Assembly (NCBI GenBank): GCA_026388545.1
Contig: JAPLJS010000026.1
Location: 1 to 32,792, forward strand
DNA length: 32,792 nt
Source of the DNA: Deltaproteobacteria bacterium
GTDB taxonomy: Bacteria; Desulfobacterota; Syntrophia; Syntrophales; UBA2185
Direction: 5' to 3'
The notes below the pieces were generated by a model. It saw only the letters and a list, made by a program, of their open reading frames with translations. It was not told the origin of the DNA and searched no databases. The translations under genes were made by a program, and so were the position numbers. Shown here piece after piece: positions 1,511 through 25,394 of the stretch. Positions within the stretch are counted from its first letter, which is position 1; every line of letters begins with the position of its first letter.

Positions 1511-4150
1511 TTACATGAACATACCGATTGTGAATTCCCACCGGCTTGCAGATTCACCTTCCTTTCGATCAAGGGCATAACCCCATTCGAGCCTCAACGG
1601 CCCGATCGGTGAGTACCAGCGTATGCCTGCTCCCGCCGTCTTCCTCATGTCGTTGATATGATAACCGCTTTCCCAGGCATTGCCTGTATCGTAAAATAAA
1701 ACCCCCTTCATCCCGGCGTTTTTAATCAGGGGGAAAATGAATTCAGCATTGAAACATAACATTGTATAGCCGCCGATAGGATCGTTCGTGTCCGGATCTC
1801 TTGGACCTACATCTCGAAGACCCCGGAGGGAACTTATGCCCCCCAGATAGTAACGCTCATAGATCGGTACATCCTTCCCCTCGTTACCGTGCACATATCC
1901 GGCTCGCCCGTACGCGCCGAGTACGGTTTCTAAGGGCAGGGGAAAAAACCATGAAGCTTTTGCCCCGTATCGGGTAAAACTTGTGTCGCCCTGAAGGATC
2001 CCACCTGTGTTTTCGATGGTAGCACTGTTTTTGGAGCCTTTTGATGGAAACATAATGTCGTCAGTCGTATCCCTTGTGAGAGTGACGGACACGGTGCTGG
2101 ATGTTGTTGTCCCTGCTTGTTCCTTTATGTACCGCGACGCCGTGTCCTTGATATCTTTGACGTCATTTGTCGTTAGTCTGTATCCAATATAACCGGTTAC
2201 ATACTCCCAGAGAGGATAACCTAACGTGGTTCCGATACCCTTTGACGATAAATTATAACTGTCATATTCCCGCGTATAATTCCAGATGTCGGATTTACTC
2301 CATAGAGGAATATCAAATAACCATGGTTCTATAAATGAGAGCTCGTACATTGATGATATGCTTCCAATTTGAGCCCTAAGGCTTAAAATCTGCCCCTTGC
2401 CAAAGAGATTTTGCTGGGAAATCTGGGCGGTTAAAATAGCATGGTCATAGGCACTGTATCCGGCGCCGACACTGAACATGCCCGTCGGTTTTTCCTTTAC
2501 ATTGATATTGACGTCGGTGAGTGTTTCATCGGGTCCCTTTTCTGTCTGAAAATTAATTTCTTCAAAGTATCTCAGGCGATTGAGCTCCATATAGCTCTTT
2601 TTCAGCTTGCTGCTGTTATACAGATCACCCTCAACAATGGCTAACTGCCTTCGTATCACCTTATCTCTTGTTTTTGTGTTGCCCGTAATGGTTATTCTGT
2701 TGAAGTAGACCTGATTACCTTTTTTAATTTGGTAAATAACATCTACCGTCTGGTCTTTTTCGTTGGGAACAGTGCGCGGAGTAATGTCGGCATAGGCATA
2801 ACCATCATCATTGCAGGCCTGGGTAAGATATTCGATATCTTTCATGATCGATTCTCTGTCATAATACTCTTTTTTGTTGATCTTCAATTTATCCAGGAGT
2901 TCAGGTCGGGGTACTGTTAACGTATCACCGGTAATATCTACCTTGCCTACTTTGAATTGTTTGCCTTCCACTACTGATATTTTTATATAAATTCCCTTCT
3001 TATCGGAGGTAATTTCCGGTTCGCCGACCTGAGCGTTGATAAAACCATGATTGAGGTAAAATGCACTCACTTTGTTGGCATCCTGTCTCAATTGTTCCTT
3101 TTTCAGAAGACCTGAGTCGGTGACGAAGTGGAAAATGCCCCATTCCGTAGCATCTATAATTTTTTTCAGTTCTTTATCGGTAAACGCCCTGTTTCCCTCA
3201 AAAGAGATGGTTTTGATATACAGTCTCTCGTTTTCGGTAATATCGATAGTGATGCGGGTATCTTTATCCCCTTCCTTATCAATCACATATTTGATCTCTG
3301 CATTGTTGTATCCCTTGTTGTCATAAAGGGACTTGATTTTTTCTATGCTGGCAACAATTTTTCCGGGGTTGAAAACCTCACGGACCTTGAAAGTCAGTGC
3401 ACTTTCTATTTCGCTCTTTTCGATGGCCTTATTCCCTTTGATCTTTATCTCTGTAATGAGGGCTTTTTCCTTCAAAATAAAAGTAATAATCTTTCCCTCA
3501 GACGTACCGGTGACATCTGTGGCTACATCATCGAAATAGCCCATCTTGTAAATAGCTTTGATGTCGGATGAGAGATCTGTTTCTGAAAAGAGGTTTCCCC
3601 TGGCACTTTTCACGACCTGATTGACGGCACTGCTTTCAATTTTCCGGTTACCCTTAAATTCAATTTTTGCTATCCTCATTTCCGCGGCGATTTGGATGAG
3701 TATATTTGTCCTTATTTTGGCAGATAGTGAGCCAATGCTTTCAAAGCCTTTACCTTGGGCGAAGACACCGGGCAGTGCTTTTTGCTCCTTTACATCAATG
3801 ACTCTTGCATCGACGCTGATGAGTTCTCCGAACTCTGACAGACTCCCCATGATGACATAATGAGCGCCCGTTTCTTTACCTACAGTGAGAGCAAGTTTTT
3901 CATCAATCCGTTTACCCTCAACAACTCCGGCAAGGATACCTCTTTCAATGAGCAGGATGTTTTTTGATTTAACCAGCTCTGTCGACAGTCCTTTGTAAAT
4001 AGCTTCCTGCAGTTTAGATACATTTGCCTTGCTGTGAATATCAAAGGGAAGGAGCGCGATTTTTTTTACATCTTCCGCGAAAGCTTTTTGATAGTTAATC
4101 AGCAGGAGCAAAGTCAGCAGAAAGACGAAGCTAATAACCTTTTTACTCAT
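1511..4150 (-). CDS. bamA: Outer membrane protein assembly factor BamA with extra N-terminal domain
   Basis: Core subunit of the BAM complex that inserts beta-barrel proteins into the outer membrane; 879 residues, compared with about 760-810 in well-studied BamA. Residues 1-25 are a signal peptide. Residues about 28-158 (KKIALLPFDIHS, LLIERGILAGVV, GAHYVIMGSLSEF) resemble the FlgO/TolB-N/CsgG-like fold and are not part of canonical BamA. Five POTRA domains follow from about residue 159 (RIAKIEFKGN, ITEIKIKGN, IKTISFEGN, KVGKVDITGD, FNRITITGN), then a C-terminal 16-strand-type barrel with the loop-6 motif SLRGL. The last residues are EFTIGMFM, so the usual terminal aromatic is at the penultimate position. 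ATG 4150 is chosen over one 30 bases upstream because it opens the signal peptide and overlaps the lolD stop by 8 bases (ATGAGTAA), indicating translational coupling. Confidence 0.95.
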   Translation of the reverse strand: MSKKVISFVFLLTLLLLINYQKAFAEDVKKIALLPFDIHSKANVSKLQEAIYKGLSTELVKSKNILLIERGILAGVVEGKRIDEKLALTVGKETGAHYVIMGSLSEFGELISVDARVIDVKEQKALPGVFAQGKGFESIGSLSAKIRTNILIQIAAEMRIAKIEFKGNRKIESSAVNQVVKSARGNLFSETDLSSDIKAIYKMGYFDDVATDVTGTSEGKIITFILKEKALITEIKIKGNKAIEKSEIESALTFKVREVFNPGKIVASIEKIKSLYDNKGYNNAEIKYVIDKEGDKDTRITIDITENERLYIKTISFEGNRAFTDKELKKIIDATEWGIFHFVTDSGLLKKEQLRQDANKVSAFYLNHGFINAQVGEPEITSDKKGIYIKISVVEGKQFKVGKVDITGDTLTVPRPELLDKLKINKKEYYDRESIMKDIEYLTQACNDDGYAYADITPRTVPNEKDQTVDVIYQIKKGNQVYFNRITITGNTKTRDKVIRRQLAIVEGDLYNSSKLKKSYMELNRLRYFEEINFQTEKGPDETLTDVNINVKEKPTGMFSVGAGYSAYDHAILTAQISQQNLFGKGQILSLRAQIGSISSMYELSFIEPWLFDIPLWSKSDIWNYTREYDSYNLSSKGIGTTLGYPLWEYVTGYIGYRLTTNDVKDIKDTASRYIKEQAGTTTSSTVSVTLTRDTTDDIMFPSKGSKNSATIENTGGILQGDTSFTRYGAKASWFFPLPLETVLGAYGRAGYVHGNEGKDVPIYERYYLGGISSLRGLRDVGPRDPDTNDPIGGYTMLCFNAEFIFPLIKNAGMKGVLFYDTGNAWESGYHINDMRKTAGAGIRWYSPIGPLRLEWGYALDRKEGESASRWEFTIGMFM

Positions 4151-4814
4151 AGTTATGTATCTTTCCATCTCGCAGGCCAATGCTTTGAGACATTCTGTCA
4201 GCCAGTGATTTATTGTGGGTTACAACGACAAGGGTGATTTGTTTGGTTCTATTGAGATCGAGCAGGATGTCTTCTATCTTCTTTCCCGTTTCACTATCAA
4301 GGTTTCCCGTGGGTTCATCAGCCAGAATAATTTCAGGTTCCATGATGAGTGCCCGTGCCACGGCGACTCGCTGTTGTTCCCCTCCCGAAAGCTCTCCAGG
4401 TTTGTGGGTCATCCTGTCACCAAGTCCTACCTCATTTAATATAGCTTCGGCCCGATCCTTCGCTTTTCGGTAGGATACGCCATGAATCAGAGCCGGCATC
4501 ATCGTATTTTCCAGACTGTTAAATTCCGGCAGGAGGTTATGGAATTGGAAAACAAAACCAATTGTTTTGTTTCTGAACTCTGCCAGTTTTTTATTGTCCC
4601 ACTCAAAGACATGAACGTCGTTAAAGAGCACAGTACCCGATGTGGGGTGATCCAGGGTTCCTAAAATATGGATTAAGGTGCTTTTTCCCGCCCCGGAAAC
4701 ACCGAGGATGGCCAATGAATGTCCTCGGGGGATGGTTAGATTCAGTTCTTTCAAAACTTCGATCTTGTTGCCGTCCTTGATGAAAGTTTTATTTAAATTA
4801 TTTACGGTTATCAT
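4143..4814 (-). CDS. lolD: Lipoprotein-releasing ABC transporter ATPase LolD
   Basis: ATPase of the LolCDE-type complex that extracts outer-membrane-destined lipoproteins from the inner membrane; 223 residues, the usual length. Visible motifs are Walker [11 protein letters not shown]-loop [10 protein letters not shown], signature [15 protein letters not shown], Walker [14 protein letters not shown] and switch His in VVTHNKSLA. The LolD-typical segment [16 protein letters not shown] separates it from generic MacB-like ATPases. Its ATG shares one base with the lolC stop (TAATG), and its own stop overlaps the bamA start, so lolC-lolD-bamA are tightly coupled. MacB-type efflux ATPases are the alternative, but the partner and context favour Lol. 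Confidence 0.93.
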
Positions 4815-12570: not shown

Positions 12571-12625
12571 TACAAAATAGTATGGTGAACCGATTTTTAT
12601 TAATAATTAATGATTGGGGGATATA

Positions 12626-13585
12626 ATGAGCAATACGACATTTTATGTCGATGAAATGCAGCTTAAGCGTCTCCATCTGTTAAGCGGTGTGAATCTTGAA
12701 TCTATCAAAGGGTTGCTGGATCTCTGTACAATTCGAACGTTGCAGCCAGAGGAGATGCTTATTGCCCGCGACCAGTCAAATCGGACCGTTTATTTCCTTC
12801 TCAACGGCCGATTACGTATACACCTGGATTCCATTGATATTGCGCCGCATATTATTCTCGGTCCCGGTGAAAGTGTCGGGGAAATGTCTGTCGTTGACAA
12901 CAAGCCAGCTTCAGCTTTTGTCGTGGCGGATGATTTATGTACACTACTGGCCATGGATGAAGAAATACTCTGGTCTCTGGTTCAGTCATCACATGTGGCT
13001 GCCTGTAATTTATTATTCACTATCATTAAACGATTACGCCATACCGACTCCGTCATTTCTGCATATGCCGAAATGGGACTTCCGTATCAACAGTACGGCA
13101 GTGTTGACGCTCTGACGGGTTTGCATAACCGCTACTGGCTGGATAATATGCTGAAACGTCAATGTTTACGTTCTTCGACGAGTAAAAACCCCCTTTCCCT
13201 TATCATAATCAATATAGACAGTTTTGAAGAGTTCAACAATCAGCACGGACGCCTGTATGGAGATCGAGTTATCTATTCGGCCGCTCACACAATCAGCGAT
13301 CTTCTTCGTCCTACGGATATTATCGCCCGTTACAGAGGAGACGAATTTATTGTTGTTCTTCCGGATATTGATATCGTAACGGCAAGACATATCGCGGAAC
13401 GCTTGCACAGGGGTGTTATAGAAAAAGTTCCCGTCACGCCTGATGGGCAAAGTATTCCGTATCCGACAATATATATGGGTATTGCGGAGATCCAAGCCAA
13501 ACAAACGTCGGAAATGCTTATTGACGCGGCAGATAGGGCATTGTTCCGGGCAAAAAACAGTGACGGGAACTGTATTTCTGAGTAA
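12626..13585 (+). CDS. Cyclic-nucleotide-binding-fold protein with GGDEF diguanylate cyclase domain
   Basis: Predicted soluble 319-residue signalling protein. Residues about 15-135 are a cNMP-binding-type beta roll (YFLLNGRLRIHL, GPGESVGEMSVVDNKPASAF). The phosphate-binding cassette has lost its usual Arg (PAS where PR is expected at 94-96), so it may bind another ligand or none. Residues about 155-319 form a GGDEF domain (DALTGLHNR at 161). The active-site motif is RGDEF (237-241), and an inhibitory-site RPTD (228-231) sits exactly five residues upstream, as in product-inhibited diguanylate cyclases. RGDEF keeps the G-D-E-F residues, so c-di-GMP synthesis is plausible but unproven. ATG 12626 is chosen because GGGGGA lies 5 bases upstream; an in-frame TTG four codons earlier is less likely. 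The radical SAM gene follows after 20 bp. Confidence 0.88.
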   Translation: MSNTTFYVDEMQLKRLHLLSGVNLESIKGLLDLCTIRTLQPEEMLIARDQSNRTVYFLLNGRLRIHLDSIDIAPHIILGPGESVGEMSVVDNKPASAFVVADDLCTLLAMDEEILWSLVQSSHVAACNLLFTIIKRLRHTDSVISAYAEMGLPYQQYGSVDALTGLHNRYWLDNMLKRQCLRSSTSKNPLSLIIINIDSFEEFNNQHGRLYGDRVIYSAAHTISDLLRPTDIIARYRGDEFIVVLPDIDIVTARHIAERLHRGVIEKVPVTPDGQSIPYPTIYMGIAEIQAKQTSEMLIDAADRALFRAKNSDGNCISE

Positions 13586-18416: not shown

Positions 18417-18968
18417 TCACTTTTTCAGCCTTGAAATCTCCTCTTTTACACGTATGAGTTCTTCTTTCGCTTCTTTTAACCGGTTCGATAGAATCTCCTT
18501 CATGATCTGTTCCTGCACAAGTTCTTCGCTTGTTTCTCTTAATCGGCGTGCCAGAACTTCGGCTACAATCTGGTAAAATATTGCGCAGAAGGCGATTTGG
18601 TCGTCCGCGACAAGATTGTCAACAAAAGAAACGTCAGTTGCCAGGCAAACGACATCGTCGACGGCGCTTACTGAAGCAGACCGTGGACCTCCATCTATGA
18701 TGCACATCTCGCCAAAAATATCACCGGTCCGTTGAAATACATTAATTTCTTCACCGTGCTTTATGACATTTGCTTTTCCGGATATGAGGAAATAAACCCA
18801 TTTGTCGATGCTGCCCTCCTCTATAATCACTTCGCCCGGCTTATACCTTTTCAACTTGCTGAAACGGAGAATCTTTTTAAGGTCTTCTTTGCCGAAGAAT
18901 TGTAATACAGGAAGGCTCTTCAGCTGCTGGACCAATTCGATATTGTCTTTTAACGTTTCTTTGTCCAT
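18417..18968 (-). CDS. Stand-alone cyclic-nucleotide-binding-domain protein with C-terminal coiled coil
   Basis: A 183-residue cytoplasmic protein. Residues about 18-135 are a CAP_ED beta roll (YKPGEVIIEEGSIDKWVYFL, TGDIFGEMCIIDGGPRSASV). The phosphate-binding cassette keeps both FGE (85-87) and PR (95-96), so it is intact for cAMP or cGMP. There is no DNA-binding domain; residues about 138-183 form a charged helix with heptad-like spacing (LRETSEELVQEQ, KEAKEELIRVKEEISRLKK), probably a coiled coil for dimerisation. It resembles single-domain cNMP sensors that act through partners. AGGAGG lies 8 bases before the ATG. It follows ahbC by 65 bp and precedes the TPR gene, a possible partner. Confidence 0.88.
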   Translation of the reverse strand: MDKETLKDNIELVQQLKSLPVLQFFGKEDLKKILRFSKLKRYKPGEVIIEEGSIDKWVYFLISGKANVIKHGEEINVFQRTGDIFGEMCIIDGGPRSASVSAVDDVVCLATDVSFVDNLVADDQIAFCAIFYQIVAEVLARRLRETSEELVQEQIMKEILSNRLKEAKEELIRVKEEISRLKK

Positions 18969-19033: not shown

Positions 19034-20179
19034 TTATTGAGCTATTTCCCTTTCCGTAAGATAACATGCGGGGTCAGGCGCCCATATATCTCCCGTGACT
19101 GCCTCTGCTCTGGCCCGAAAATTTCCACCGCATATATCGAGCCACCGGCATGTGGAACATCTTCCCGTTACATATTTCTTTTTATCTTTCAGCCGAACTA
19201 TCAACTCATTTGATGTATCCACCCATATCTCGCTGAAAGGACGTTTTCTCACATTGCCGAATGATATACCCCTCCAGAACTGATCGGCATATACTTCACC
19301 ATCCCAGCTCACACAGCCGATACCGTTTCCGGAACTATTACCCTCATTTACCATGAGGAGAGACAAAGCCTCCGCTGCCCTCGCGGGATCTTCCCTCGAC
19401 AGACGCATATAGACGTATGGTCCGTCGGCATGGTTATCCACGGTAAGCAATTCTTTGGGTTTGCCCCGTTCAAAAAGATCACGGGTCCTGTCCATAATGA
19501 GATCAACAACCTTCCGGGTTTCTCCGTGAGAAAGGTCTTCATCAATCAATAGAGACCCACGCCCTGAGTAGACCAGATGATAAAAACATGCACGGGGTAT
19601 ATTTTCCTTTTCGATGAGTTCAAAAAGGGCAGGAATATCGGAAAAATTTTTCCTGTTTATGGTAAAACGGATACCTACCTTGATTCCTTCATCCCGGCAG
19701 GTTCTGATTCCCTTCAGGGTCATGTCAAAGGCTCCCTCGACGCCCCTGAACCGGTCATGGCTCTTTTGCATCCCGTCAAGGCTTACACCTGCATAAGAAA
19801 TACCGGTCTTTTTTAAGGTTTCCGCGGTTTTTTTTGTCAATAATGTTCCATTGGTTGATATGACGGCTCTTATGCCCCGATCCACGGCGTACTTTACCAG
19901 TTCGGGGAGATCTTCTCTCATCAACGGCTCGCCGCCGGAAAAAAGAATAACGGGAGATCCGAAGGCGGCAAGATCGGATATCAGTTTCTTCCCCTCATCC
20001 GTGGTCAATTCGTTCCTATATCTGATGTTCCGGGAGCTGGAGTAGCAGTGTATGCACTTAAGATTACATCTTCTCGTCATGTTCCAGACGACCACCGGCC
20101 GTTTATGCTTTTCGCTTCCATAGCGGAGCGCATCCATGGTTTCTGCCTGGCCGCAGTATAGTCTTGAGATACTTATCAT
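19034..20179 (-). CDS. ahbC: Radical SAM 12,18-didecarboxysiroheme deacetylase AhbC-like
   Basis: Predicted enzyme of the alternative heme pathway: AhbC removes two acetate side chains from 12,18-didecarboxysiroheme to give iron-coproporphyrin III in the cytoplasm. At 381 residues it has the AhbC/NirJ length. The N-terminus ISISRLYCGQAETMDALRYG is the AhbC-type opening. The radical SAM cluster motif is TRRCNLKCIHCYSS with Cys 38, 42 and 45 (CX3CX2C), followed by LFSGGEPLMREDLPE and ISTNGTLLTKKTAE. A C-terminal SPASM/twitch region holds GCVSWDGEVYADQFW, GRCSTCRWLDICGGNFRARAE and a last Cys in DPACYLTE for auxiliary clusters. GAAGG lies 8 bases before the ATG. No ahbA, ahbB or ahbD is present here, so the pathway must be scattered. 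NirJ-type heme d1 enzymes are the close alternative. Confidence 0.85.
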   Translation of the reverse strand: MISISRLYCGQAETMDALRYGSEKHKRPVVVWNMTRRCNLKCIHCYSSSRNIRYRNELTTDEGKKLISDLAAFGSPVILFSGGEPLMREDLPELVKYAVDRGIRAVISTNGTLLTKKTAETLKKTGISYAGVSLDGMQKSHDRFRGVEGAFDMTLKGIRTCRDEGIKVGIRFTINRKNFSDIPALFELIEKENIPRACFYHLVYSGRGSLLIDEDLSHGETRKVVDLIMDRTRDLFERGKPKELLTVDNHADGPYVYMRLSREDPARAAEALSLLMVNEGNSSGNGIGCVSWDGEVYADQFWRGISFGNVRKRPFSEIWVDTSNELIVRLKDKKKYVTGRCSTCRWLDICGGNFRARAEAVTGDIWAPDPACYLTEREIAQ

Positions 20180-22006: not shown

Positions 22007-23587
22007 CTATATGTGAATGCCCACCTCTCGTCTCTCTGAGCGTCTTTCTGTGAAGAAAACCTGCGTATTCAGCAAATCCCAGGCACGGTCCTTCCTGAAT
22101 TCGGAAATCTGCCCGTCACGGATGTTTATGACGTCCTGATCTTTGAGATCCTTCAGTACCTGTTGAATTTCTCCGGGTTCTTTTCTGGTGTACCGGCATA
22201 GTTCCTCCACGGGATTCCGGTCGGGCGGGAGCGGCCATTCATTGAGAAAATAGAGAACAGCAATCAACCTGATCCAGGATCGGGTAAGTTCTTCAAGTGC
22301 GAGATTTGTATGTTTGATCCTGTTCGAAAATTCTTTGAGCATAAAAAGGGACACATCACCGCTTTCTTGCAGCAGATTGCGAAAGGTGTTCCCGTCAATG
22401 ACGGCCACATTGCTGTCTTCCGTGGCTAGCGCTGAAGCGGTACGCGGTGCTTCAATCAACGCAGCCATTTCTCCAAAGTACTCCCCCGGCCCCATTTCGG
22501 CCAGGACCTTTTTTACCTGGCCGGCGCTTTTCTCCACCCGCACATTACCCGTGAGGATATAGTACATTTCCTGTCCGGTGTCCCCCTCTCTGAAAATATA
22601 GGCGCCTTTGGTGTACATACGTCCGAATTTTTTAAACATGCGTTCTTCGATTCTCATAACTTTTTTTCTGGGCTTCAAAAAAGCCTTTTCAAGGAGGATT
22701 AGATTTCTTCTCCGGTGAGAAGAAATGAGCTCCGCACAGAAGAGGAGGATCAATGCCATATAGAAAACCCAGATCACGAGGATGACCACGGTTTCCAGAG
22801 AACCGAATATCACATTATATCGTGTATAATTGGTCACATACCAGGTGAAAAAGTGTTTCGCAATTTCCATTAATGCTGAAAAGATAGCGGCGCCCGTGAT
22901 TGCACTGCCCAGGCTGACCTTTATGGTGGGGGTGATTTTATAAACAAGCGTAAAAAATGCCACTGTCAGCAGGTAAGGCAAAACAAAGCGAAACAGAGCA
23001 CCGTGTAAGAAAGGAAGGATTATGAACTCTTTACCGGAAAGCAAGGGTTGTTTTGCAAGGATTGTTGAGATATAGGTAATTCCCACACTAATAACGCCGA
23101 CAGCCCACCCCATAGGAATCATGGAAATTGCGAGGAGCTTGGAGACAATATAGTTTCGGTTTTTTCTTGAGCGGAAAATAATATTCATGGCGGTCTCGAT
23201 GGCGCTGAAAATCATTGCGGAAAACCATACAAGACTGATGATTCCGACCCAGCCAAGAACACGTTTTTTTTGCTCGATCTGGCCCAGTTGGCCAAGCAGG
23301 GATTCTGAGAAGTATGGATGAAACTCCCGGATCGCTTCGATAAGCTCTTTCTGGATATTCGGGTGAGAACCAAAAATGTAGTTTGCCAACAGCAGGGTTA
23401 ATATAAACAGGGGAATAAAAGAAAGAATCGCGTAGAGAGAAATAGCCGCAGCTTGATTAACATTACCGTTATTCTGGTAATTTTTGATCGCATTCCACAG
23501 GATATCCCATATGGTGGCGAAGAGAAGATGAGGCCGTTCCATATGATATTTCAAGTGATGATATTTCTGTTTCATTTTACCGGGCAT
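22007..23587 (-). CDS. YihY/BrkB-family membrane protein fused to cNMP-binding domain and winged helix
   Basis: A 526-residue three-part protein. Residues about 20-300 are a YihY/BrkB (formerly RNase BN) membrane domain with about six helices: NQAAAISLYAILSFIPLFIL, WVGIISLVWFSAMIFSAIET, FRFVLPYLLTVAFFTLVYKI and VVILVIWVFYMALILLFCAE. Residues about 318-425 are a cAMP/cGMP-type beta roll with an intact cassette (FGEMAALIEAPRTASAL: FGE 371-373, PR 381-382). Residues about 435-500 (WIRLIAVLYFLNEWPL, EELCRYTRKEPGEIQQVLKD) look like the winged helix of CRP/FNR proteins, recognition helix near 471-482. The result resembles a membrane-tethered CRP-like regulator. The role of YihY domains is unknown despite their former RNase BN label. 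A strong promoter lies 84 bases upstream. No convincing ribosome site precedes ATG 23587; a second ATG is four codons on. Confidence 0.9.
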   Translation of the reverse strand: MPGKMKQKYHHLKYHMERPHLLFATIWDILWNAIKNYQNNGNVNQAAAISLYAILSFIPLFILTLLLANYIFGSHPNIQKELIEAIREFHPYFSESLLGQLGQIEQKKRVLGWVGIISLVWFSAMIFSAIETAMNIIFRSRKNRNYIVSKLLAISMIPMGWAVGVISVGITYISTILAKQPLLSGKEFIILPFLHGALFRFVLPYLLTVAFFTLVYKITPTIKVSLGSAITGAAIFSALMEIAKHFFTWYVTNYTRYNVIFGSLETVVILVIWVFYMALILLFCAELISSHRRRNLILLEKAFLKPRKKVMRIEERMFKKFGRMYTKGAYIFREGDTGQEMYYILTGNVRVEKSAGQVKKVLAEMGPGEYFGEMAALIEAPRTASALATEDSNVAVIDGNTFRNLLQESGDVSLFMLKEFSNRIKHTNLALEELTRSWIRLIAVLYFLNEWPLPPDRNPVEELCRYTRKEPGEIQQVLKDLKDQDVINIRDGQISEFRKDRAWDLLNTQVFFTERRSERREVGIHI

Positions 23588-23671: not shown

Positions 23672-23700
23672 AGTATAGGGGAGCAGTAGGGGTGTGTCAA
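23672..23700 (-). promoter_or_regulatory. Strong sigma70-type promoter of the YihY-fusion gene
   Basis: Minus-strand TTGACA (23700-23695), exactly 17 bases, TATACT (23677-23672). Its -35 covers the GTG at 23694 that could otherwise extend the next gene upstream, which supports the later start at 23760 for that gene. Confidence 0.7.
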
Positions 23701-23759: not shown

Positions 23760-25394
23760 ATGAGGATTATAAAATATGTCATTCTCTTAATTATTGTTCC
23801 TATTGCGTTATGGGGTTGCAGCCAGAAGGAACAGGGCACCGCCGCCGGAAACCTTTCCGACTCGGGACCTGCCTATGGGGACATTGTCGTTTCTGGTTCC
23901 ATAGGAGACGCCAGTAACTTAATTCCCCTCCTCTCCTCGGACAGCACATCCCATGAAATTTCTTCCATGGTTTTCAACGGCCTCGTCAAGTATGACAAAA
24001 ACCTCAATATTGTCGGTGATCTTGCCGAATCATGGGAGTTGTCGAAAGGTGGGCTGGTGATTACCTTCCGCCTGAGAAAGGGTATTACATGGCATGACGG
24101 TCGTCTCTTTACCGCCCAAGACGTCCTCTTTACGTATCAGGTTACAATAGACCCTAAAACCCCCACCGCATATTCCGGTGACTTTCTCAAGGTCAAGAAG
24201 GCGGAAGTCCTTGATGACTGCACCTTCCGGGTTACCTATGATAAACCGTTCGCCCCCGCCCTCATGAGTTGGGGGAGCGCCATTCTTCCCAAACATCTTC
24301 TTGCGGGCAAAGATATTACAGCATCCCCCCTGGCGCGTCACCCCATAGGCACCGGGCCGTACATGTTCAAAGAGTGGGTTCCCGGCCAGAAGATTGTCCT
24401 CATCTCCAACCCGGACTATTTTGAAGGGCGACCGTATATTGATGGCAATATCATGCGCATCATTCCCGATACGGCCACCATGTTTTTAGAATTGCGCGCA
24501 AACGGCATCGACCGGATGAATCTGACACCCCTTCAGTACACAAGGCAAACGGAAAACAATTTGTTTCGCAATAATTACAACAAGTATCGGTATCTTTCCT
24601 TTTCCTATACCTACCTTGGCTACAATCTGATAAACCCCTTGTTTTCGGACAAACGGGTGCGGCAGGCCATCGCGTATGGGATTAACAAGGATGAGATTAT
24701 TCAGGGTATTCTCCTGGGATTAGGAAAGGCGGCTACAGGCCCCTACAAGCCCGGCACCTGGGTCTATAATCCCAATGTCAAAACGTATTCATACGATCCC
24801 CGGAAGGCGAGGGAACTTCTTGCAGAAGCGGGATGGAAAGACACAAACGGTGATGGTATTCTGGAAAAGGATGGCCAGCCCTTTGTTTTTGAGATAATCA
24901 CGAATCAGGGGAACGATATCCGGGCAAAGTGTGCCGAGATTATTCAGAGGCATCTTGCCGAACTGGGTATTAAGGTGAAAATCAGGGTCCTCGAATGGGC
25001 AGCTTTTGTTAATGATTTTATTAACAAGCGGCGTTTTGACGCGACGATCCTCGGATGGACGATACCTCTTGATCCCGACATATATGATGTCTGGCATTCG
25101 AGTAAGACGGGGGCGCAGGAACTGAACTTCATATCCTACAAAAACGAAGAGGTTGATAAACTGATAGAAAAGGGAAGGGGCACGTTCGACCAGCAAGAAA
25201 GAAAAAAATATTATGACAGGATCCAGGAGATATTGGCTGAGGAACAACCCTATACATTCCTCTATGTTCCCGATGCCTTGCCCATAGTTCATGCACGATT
25301 TCGCGGCATTGAACCGGCGCCTCTGGGGATCGGACACAATTTCATCAAGTGGTATGTTTCTAAAGAAGAACAAAAACTGGTCATGACGAGATAA
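23760..25394 (+). CDS. Peptide/oligopeptide ABC transporter substrate-binding lipoprotein (SBP family 5)
   Basis: A 544-residue periplasmic lipoprotein of the DppA/OppA family (SBP_bac_5). The signal ends in lipobox LWGC with the lipidated Cys at residue 20, which fixes the start at ATG 23760; an in-frame GTG at 23694 would put 22 extra residues before the signal. Family features are SSMVFNGLVKYDKNLNIVGD, LAESWELSKGGLVITFRLRKG, ITWHDGRLFTAQDV, the HPIGTGPYMFKEWVPGQ segment and KRVRQAIAYGINKDEI. Typical ligands are peptides, nickel or sugars; the sequence does not decide. No permease or ATPase genes adjoin it, so it is an orphan component served by a transporter elsewhere. No good ribosome site precedes the ATG. 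Confidence 0.92.
   Translation: MRIIKYVILLIIVPIALWGCSQKEQGTAAGNLSDSGPAYGDIVVSGSIGDASNLIPLLSSDSTSHEISSMVFNGLVKYDKNLNIVGDLAESWELSKGGLVITFRLRKGITWHDGRLFTAQDVLFTYQVTIDPKTPTAYSGDFLKVKKAEVLDDCTFRVTYDKPFAPALMSWGSAILPKHLLAGKDITASPLARHPIGTGPYMFKEWVPGQKIVLISNPDYFEGRPYIDGNIMRIIPDTATMFLELRANGIDRMNLTPLQYTRQTENNLFRNNYNKYRYLSFSYTYLGYNLINPLFSDKRVRQAIAYGINKDEIIQGILLGLGKAATGPYKPGTWVYNPNVKTYSYDPRKARELLAEAGWKDTNGDGILEKDGQPFVFEIITNQGNDIRAKCAEIIQRHLAELGIKVKIRVLEWAAFVNDFINKRRFDATILGWTIPLDPDIYDVWHSSKTGAQELNFISYKNEEVDKLIEKGRGTFDQQERKKYYDRIQEILAEEQPYTFLYVPDALPIVHARFRGIEPAPLGIGHNFIKWYVSKEEQKLVMTR

What the first reader, a model, noticed from the sequence alone, without database searches (positions are those of the whole stretch)
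22007..23587. Membrane-anchored CRP-like protein: YihY domain fused to cNMP-binding domain and winged helix
The protein joins a six-helix YihY/BrkB membrane domain, a cNMP-binding domain with an intact phosphate cassette (FGE...PR), and a C-terminal stretch that looks like a CRP winged helix. YihY proteins have no agreed function. The fusion suggests that cyclic nucleotide state gates a membrane activity, or that a DNA-binding module is tethered to the membrane. The gene has its own near-consensus promoter. The winged-helix reading is by eye and is the weakest part.
Basis: partly seen in the sequence, partly recalled or inferred. Interest (0 to 1): 0.62.

Follow-up and report, generated by a model that had tools for sequence, protein, structure and literature searches.

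The report
Cyclic-nucleotide-sensing YihY membrane protein
A bacterial inner-membrane protein of poorly understood function (YihY/BrkB) is built as one piece with a CRP-like sensor for cyclic nucleotides; the fusion is real and conserved across one order of bacteria, and it most likely lets cAMP or cGMP control the membrane part rather than tying a DNA-binding regulator to the membrane.

Summary
The minus-strand ORF 22007-23587 (526 aa) has a six-helix YihY/BrkB domain, a cNMP-binding domain (CNB) with an invariant ligand pocket, and a C-terminal winged helix. The model of residues ~300-510 matches CRP-family proteins end to end (4ev0, TM 0.70). At least 65 loci, almost all titled Syntrophales/Deltaproteobacteria, carry the same three-domain ORF. 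In the sister lineage the halves are two overlapping genes. A more distant lineage has YihY followed by a separate CNB-only gene; another has YihY-CNB without the winged helix. So YihY and CNB are repeatedly paired, and the winged helix is optional. Its DNA-facing recognition-helix positions are variable and mostly acidic, and the CRP DNA contacts R180 and R185 are replaced. Pocket residues E373, R382 and R423 (CRP E72, R82, R123) are 57/57 conserved. I therefore favour cyclic-nucleotide gating of YihY (probably lipid/LPS-precursor handling, by analogy with E. coli YhjD) over a membrane-tethered transcription factor. Many other YihY proteins in the phylum carry a different, Rrf2-like winged-helix tail, so transcription-factor-derived tails are common on YihY; the CNB is what is distinctive. 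Function is inferred, not shown.

The parts
22007..23587 (-). gene for the 526-aa YihY-CNB-winged-helix protein
   Evidence: ORF and translation; same three-domain ORF in at least 65 other loci
22710..23455 (-). YihY/BrkB six-helix membrane domain, residues 45-292
   Evidence: PF03631 E 6e-43; helices in the model; hydropathy
22310..22620 (-). cNMP-binding domain with start of C-helix, residues about 323-426; pocket residues E373, R382, R423, and T427 just beyond
   Evidence: PF00027 E 1.5e-23; E373, R382, R423 57/57 and T427 T/S 53/57
22091..22291 (-). winged-helix domain, residues 433-499, with degenerate recognition helix
   Evidence: model secondary structure and Foldseek to CRP; DNA-facing positions variable and acidic
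23672..23700 (-). sigma-70-like promoter TTGACA-N17-TATACT
   Evidence: 11 of 12; hexamers largely conserved in close relatives
23760..25394 (+). divergent gene for a family-5 solute-binding lipoprotein (start chosen at the lipoprotein signal), a conserved neighbour but not necessarily part of the mechanism
   Evidence: PF00496; divergent within about 3 kb in 32 of 87 loci and immediately adjacent in 21

Best explanation
It is a cyclic-nucleotide-regulated YihY-family inner-membrane protein. Shown: a six-TM YihY domain is fused to a CRP-fold cytosolic module whose CNB keeps the ligand pocket and whose winged helix has lost the CRP-type DNA-readout residues. Inferred: cAMP (or cGMP) made by the cell's class III cyclases binds the CNB. 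The C-helix and winged helix, probably across a dimer as in CRP, then move the linker after TM6 and switch the YihY domain on or off. The YihY domain most likely handles lipid or LPS-precursor movement, by homology to E. coli YhjD. The winged helix serves as a dimerisation or protein-contact part, not as a DNA reader.
For: Pocket residues are invariant: E373, R382, R423 57/57; T427 T/S 53/57; pocket entropy 0.42 bits. DNA-facing recognition-helix positions are far more variable (2.52 bits, against 0.94 for the helix core); the CRP R180 position is mainly P and the R185 position is acidic in 40/57 and basic in 3/57. The YihY-CNB pairing recurs in several forms: fused with winged helix; split with ATGA or TAATG overlap in L115/L116; adjacent CNB-only gene in L119/L120 (and, as a shorter ORF, L124); fused without winged helix in L118/L125/L126. 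The tree puts L115/L116 as sister to the fused clade (99/87) and the L118/L125/L126 lineage far away, so the pairing probably arose more than once. The own genome has six class III cyclases, and all 29 relatives with the three-domain protein have at least one. E. coli YhjD is a BrkB-family protein and was reported to bind rough LPS and co-purify with LptB (PMC3219608).
Against: No ligand, activity or substrate has been measured for this family. An intact pocket does not prove cAMP/cGMP binding. The cyclase co-occurrence is weak because 56 of 60 relatives have one. The YhjD link is 21% identity to one paralogue, resting on one study. The winged helix is kept in nearly every fused protein, which suggests it does something. 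Two Smithella-type genomes kept YihY without CNB and winged helix (L103, L117), so the regulation is dispensable there.
Confidence: 0.55

Rival explanations
1. Membrane-tethered transcription factor: cyclic-nucleotide binding lets the winged helix bind DNA near the membrane, for example the shared upstream region with the divergent solute-binding lipoprotein gene, with YihY as anchor or sensor.
For: CRP-like winged-helix fold; divergent arrangement with the lipoprotein gene in 32 loci; 25 of 57 members have a basic residue at position 475.
Against: The recognition-helix surface is variable and acidic; the domain is net negative on average; no CRP-like site was seen in the intergenic regions, only the promoter (a limited pattern search); the lipoprotein adjacency persists in L103/L117, which lack the CNB and winged helix; other YihY-CNB forms have no winged helix.
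Confidence: 0.2
2. Cyclic-nucleotide-gated transport of something other than lipids (ion or small-solute channel or transporter), like bacterial CNB-bearing channels.
For: Several solved bacterial membrane proteins with a CNB are channels, such as SthK, which is among the sequence matches.
Against: The membrane domain matches only BrkB in the family scan; the one studied relative points to LPS.
Confidence: 0.15
3. The CNB no longer signals by ligand and is a scaffold: the CRP-like module only dimerises or localises YihY.
For: CNB folds can lose ligand binding (general knowledge); some Smithella-type genomes have lost the module altogether.
Against: The ligand-contact residues are the most conserved part of the soluble half.
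Confidence: 0.1

Closest known systems
YihY/BrkB family (PF03631, TIGR00765), including E. coli YihY and YhjD
   Same: Membrane domain matches over its full length; six membrane helices
   Different: E. coli YhjD (337 aa) shows only the BrkB domain, with no CNB or winged helix
PRK04214-type 'ribonuclease BN/unknown domain fusion' YihY proteins
   Same: YihY domain followed by a soluble tail with a winged helix; 102 of 150 listed YihY reading frames in the phylum are 380 aa or longer
   Different: Their tail is Rrf2-like (Rrf2 over cut-off in L146 and L149, HTH_24 in L160) and has no CNB
CRP/FNR transcription factors (for example 4ev0, E. coli CRP)
   Same: Residues about 300-510 match the whole CRP fold; CRP pocket residues E72, R82, R123 kept, T127 mostly T or S
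   Different: Membrane-anchored; DNA-contact residues R180 and R185 not kept
Cyclic-nucleotide-gated membrane proteins such as SthK
   Same: Membrane domain followed by a cytosolic CNB
   Different: Unrelated membrane domain; those I know lack a winged helix after the CNB (own knowledge)

Membership tests
YihY/BrkB | PF03631/TIGR00765 match over cut-off along the whole domain | tested here: met
   PF03631 147.7 bits against 33.7; TIGR00765 110.4 against 73.15
YihY/BrkB | six transmembrane helices | tested here: met
   model helices and hydropathy
cNMP-binding domain proteins | CNB fold with phosphate-binding cassette (G-E and R) | tested here: met
   PF00027 83 bits against 27.5; E373 and R382 57/57
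cNMP-binding domain proteins | binds cAMP or cGMP | not testable with these tools
   pocket residues only
CRP/FNR transcription factors | CNB, long C-helix and winged helix in CRP order and fold | tested here: met
   Foldseek to 4ev0 TM 0.70; hhalign to CRP prob 99.7
CRP/FNR transcription factors | recognition-helix DNA contacts (CRP R180, E181, R185) | tested here: not met
   R180 position mainly P, R185 position acidic in 40/57, surface variable
CRP/FNR transcription factors | sequence-specific DNA binding | not testable with these tools
   needs gel shift, SELEX or ChIP
lipid or LPS-precursor transporter like YhjD | same Pfam family as YhjD | tested here: met
   YhjD is PF03631; 21% identity
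lipid or LPS-precursor transporter like YhjD | moves or binds lipid | not testable with these tools
   only literature on YhjD (PMC3219608)

The most novel reading that the evidence does not exclude
A second messenger directly gates envelope lipid (or LPS-precursor) transport: cAMP/cGMP binding to a CRP module captured from transcription switches a YihY flippase-like protein, and the Rrf2-like tails on other YihY proteins are a parallel case of transcription-factor modules recruited to control the same membrane domain.
Probability: 0.25. Interest if true: 0.8.

Novelty: new variant of a known kind. Interest (0 to 1): 0.5.

Why it matters
YihY/BrkB proteins are widespread (169 of 198 genomes sampled in this phylum, and 10 of 14 control genomes), yet have no agreed activity. 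A natural version with a built-in ligand switch gives a handle: add a defined nucleotide and look for what changes. The split gene pairs also offer a soluble partner that can be purified. The wider pattern of Rrf2-like and CRP-like tails suggests that YihY activity is tied to metabolic sensing in many bacteria.

Tried and rejected
Error or frameshift joining two genes: rejected, one ORF in at least 65 loci. L101 is a break inside the YihY part and was treated as a likely sequencing error, not a split. CRP-type operators (TGTGA-N6-TCACA and variants) in 22 divergent intergenic regions: none, only promoters; the search was by simple patterns and two small alignments. Alone it aligns somewhat better with the Rrf2-like tails (prob 42) than with a three-sequence CRP profile (prob 5), so its origin, CRP or an older YihY tail, is unsettled. 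VIA-align of the fragment model mostly rated the CNB part; its rank 1 row (4ev0_D) spans the winged helix with rmsd 16.3, that is, a different domain orientation. Papers on YihY or BrkB with cyclic nucleotide binding: none found in the library. Papers on YihY/BrkB as flippase or scramblase: nothing relevant listed. A phylum search around the Holophagaceae-titled loci L087/L098: not possible; whether these are transfers or mislabelled bins is open.

Full report
WHAT IS THERE. The gene lies on the minus strand, 23587 down to 22007, 526 codons. Pfam gives BrkB at residues 45-293 and cNMP_binding at 324-408, both far over cut-off. The full-length AlphaFold2 model (57 sequences, mean pLDDT 78, pTM 0.69) shows six long membrane helices, then the CNB beta roll, a long C-helix (410-450 in this model; broken into 410-425 and 433-450 in the fragment model) and a winged helix: helices 459-467 and 471-483, strands 487-490 and 493-497. 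Foldseek places residues ~300-510 on the whole chain of 4ev0_A, a Thermus CRP-family protein (TM by target 0.70, rmsd 4.8). The fragment model gives the same family at E 2.7e-13, but with a different domain orientation (rmsd 14-17), so the relative placement of CNB and winged helix is uncertain. By sequence, a profile of the soluble half runs through the winged helix of 4ev0, mycobacterial CRP and E. coli CAP. Six membrane helices and a strongly positive stretch after the last one put the soluble half in the cytoplasm.

IT IS CONSERVED. Of 60 related genomes, 29 besides the own one carry a full-length homologue (43-80% identity). A scan of named genomes returned 78 loci, nearly all titled Syntrophaceae, Smithella, Syntrophus or Deltaproteobacteria; 65 have all three domains in one ORF with a near-complete YihY part. 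Some of these named records are the same genomes as the unnamed ones. Two are titled Holophagaceae (L087, L098) and group inside the clade; transfer or mislabelled bins cannot be told apart here.

THE PAIRING RECURS IN OTHER FORMS. In two genomes (L115, L116) the YihY gene ends in an ATGA or TAATG overlap with a separate gene for the CNB(-winged helix) protein. L115's partner is 203 aa with CNB and winged helix; L116's runs off the contig after the CNB. These two are sister to all fused proteins (99/87), consistent with fusion of an older two-gene operon, although they sit on longish branches. In another family (L119, L120) a 292-aa YihY gene is followed within a few bases by a 141-143-aa CNB-only gene; in L124 the downstream CNB ORF is shorter, 106 aa. 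In L118, L125 and L126 YihY and CNB are fused without a winged helix, and their YihY domains are very distant from ours. L127 is also fused without the winged helix; its place in the tree is uncertain. Smithella SCADC (L103) and L117 kept YihY only, from within the fused clade, a secondary loss. So CNB goes with YihY repeatedly; the winged helix is a feature of one lineage.

LIGAND POCKET AGAINST DNA SURFACE. Over 57 fused proteins, E373 (CRP E72, ribose), R382 (CRP R82, phosphate) and R423 (CRP R123) never vary, and T427 (CRP T127, adenine contact) is T or S in 53. Residue roles are from established CRP structures; the column mapping is from the profile alignment. Mean column entropy is 0.42 bits in the pocket, 1.21 over the CNB, 2.1 over the winged helix and 2.52 at the six recognition-helix positions that face DNA in CRP; the buried core of that helix is 0.94. 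The position of CRP R180 is mostly proline; that of R185 is acidic in 40 of 57 and basic in 3. The fold has been kept while the DNA-reading face has not. This is the main reason to prefer gating over a tethered transcription factor. A non-CRP mode of DNA binding is not excluded.

UPSTREAM REGION AND NEIGHBOURS. The promoter TTGACA-N17-TATACT lies at 23700-23672, and its hexamers are largely kept in close relatives. The gene is divergent from a family-5 solute-binding lipoprotein in 32 of 87 loci, immediately so in 21. The arrangement also holds in L103 and L117, which lack the CNB and winged helix, so it does not depend on them. No CRP-like operator was found in 22 intergenic regions.

SIGNAL SUPPLY. 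The own genome has six class III cyclase genes. All 29 relatives with the three-domain protein have at least one, but so do 56 of all 60, so this is permissive, not strong, evidence.

WHAT YIHY MAY DO. E. coli YhjD belongs to the same Pfam family. A genetic-interaction study reported that YhjD binds rough LPS, co-purifies with LptB, and that strains lacking yhjD accumulate lipid A precursors (PMC3219608). At 21% identity this is a lead, not a test. I take lipid or LPS-precursor handling as the likeliest substrate class.

A WIDER PATTERN. PF03631 was found in 169 of 198 genomes of the phylum, and 102 of 150 listed reading frames are 380 aa or longer. I fetched 20 of these; most tails look like a winged helix of Rrf2 type (Rrf2 over cut-off in L146 and L149, HTH_24 in L160, sub-threshold HTH matches in others). 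The 'unknown domain' of the NCBI model PRK04214 is therefore probably this winged helix: PRK04214 matches run into it. Winged-helix tails on YihY are thus common, and what sets the present protein apart is the CNB.

VERDICT. Most likely a YihY protein under direct cyclic-nucleotide control. No mechanism step beyond anatomy and conservation has been shown. I found no paper describing the architecture in the library searched, which holds open-access papers only; domain databases may already list it.

Noticed in passing
window 12614-13585 +, 18417-18968 -, 22007-23587 -: Three of the genome's 11 cNMP-binding matches lie on this one 32.8-kb contig (Poisson chance about 2e-4): a CNB-GGDEF diguanylate cyclase, a CNB plus helical-tail protein, and the YihY fusion. 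L037 and L040 also have a small CNB gene within about 1.5 kb.
   Followed up: partly
L146, L149, L160 and other loci L146-L165: Most long YihY proteins in the phylum carry a C-terminal Rrf2-like or other winged helix, probably the 'unknown domain' of PRK04214.
   Followed up: partly
window 23760-25394 +: Orphan family-5 solute-binding lipoprotein gene divergent from the YihY fusion, conserved in 32 loci; no ABC permease is seen next to it in the window.
   Followed up: partly
L087, L098: Contigs titled Holophagaceae (Acidobacteriota) carry the fusion and group inside the Syntrophales clade: transfer or mislabelled bins.
   Followed up: no
L107-L111, L121-L123: YihY-only proteins of another family followed by a conserved ~420-aa gene (cluster 7), annotation not checked.
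   Followed up: no
window 19034-20179 -: Radical SAM gene matching AhbC (12,18-didecarboxysiroheme deacetylase) over cut-off, pointing to the siroheme-dependent haem route.
   Followed up: no
window 1511-4180 -: BamA-like Omp85 gene with five POTRA matches on the same contig.
   Followed up: no
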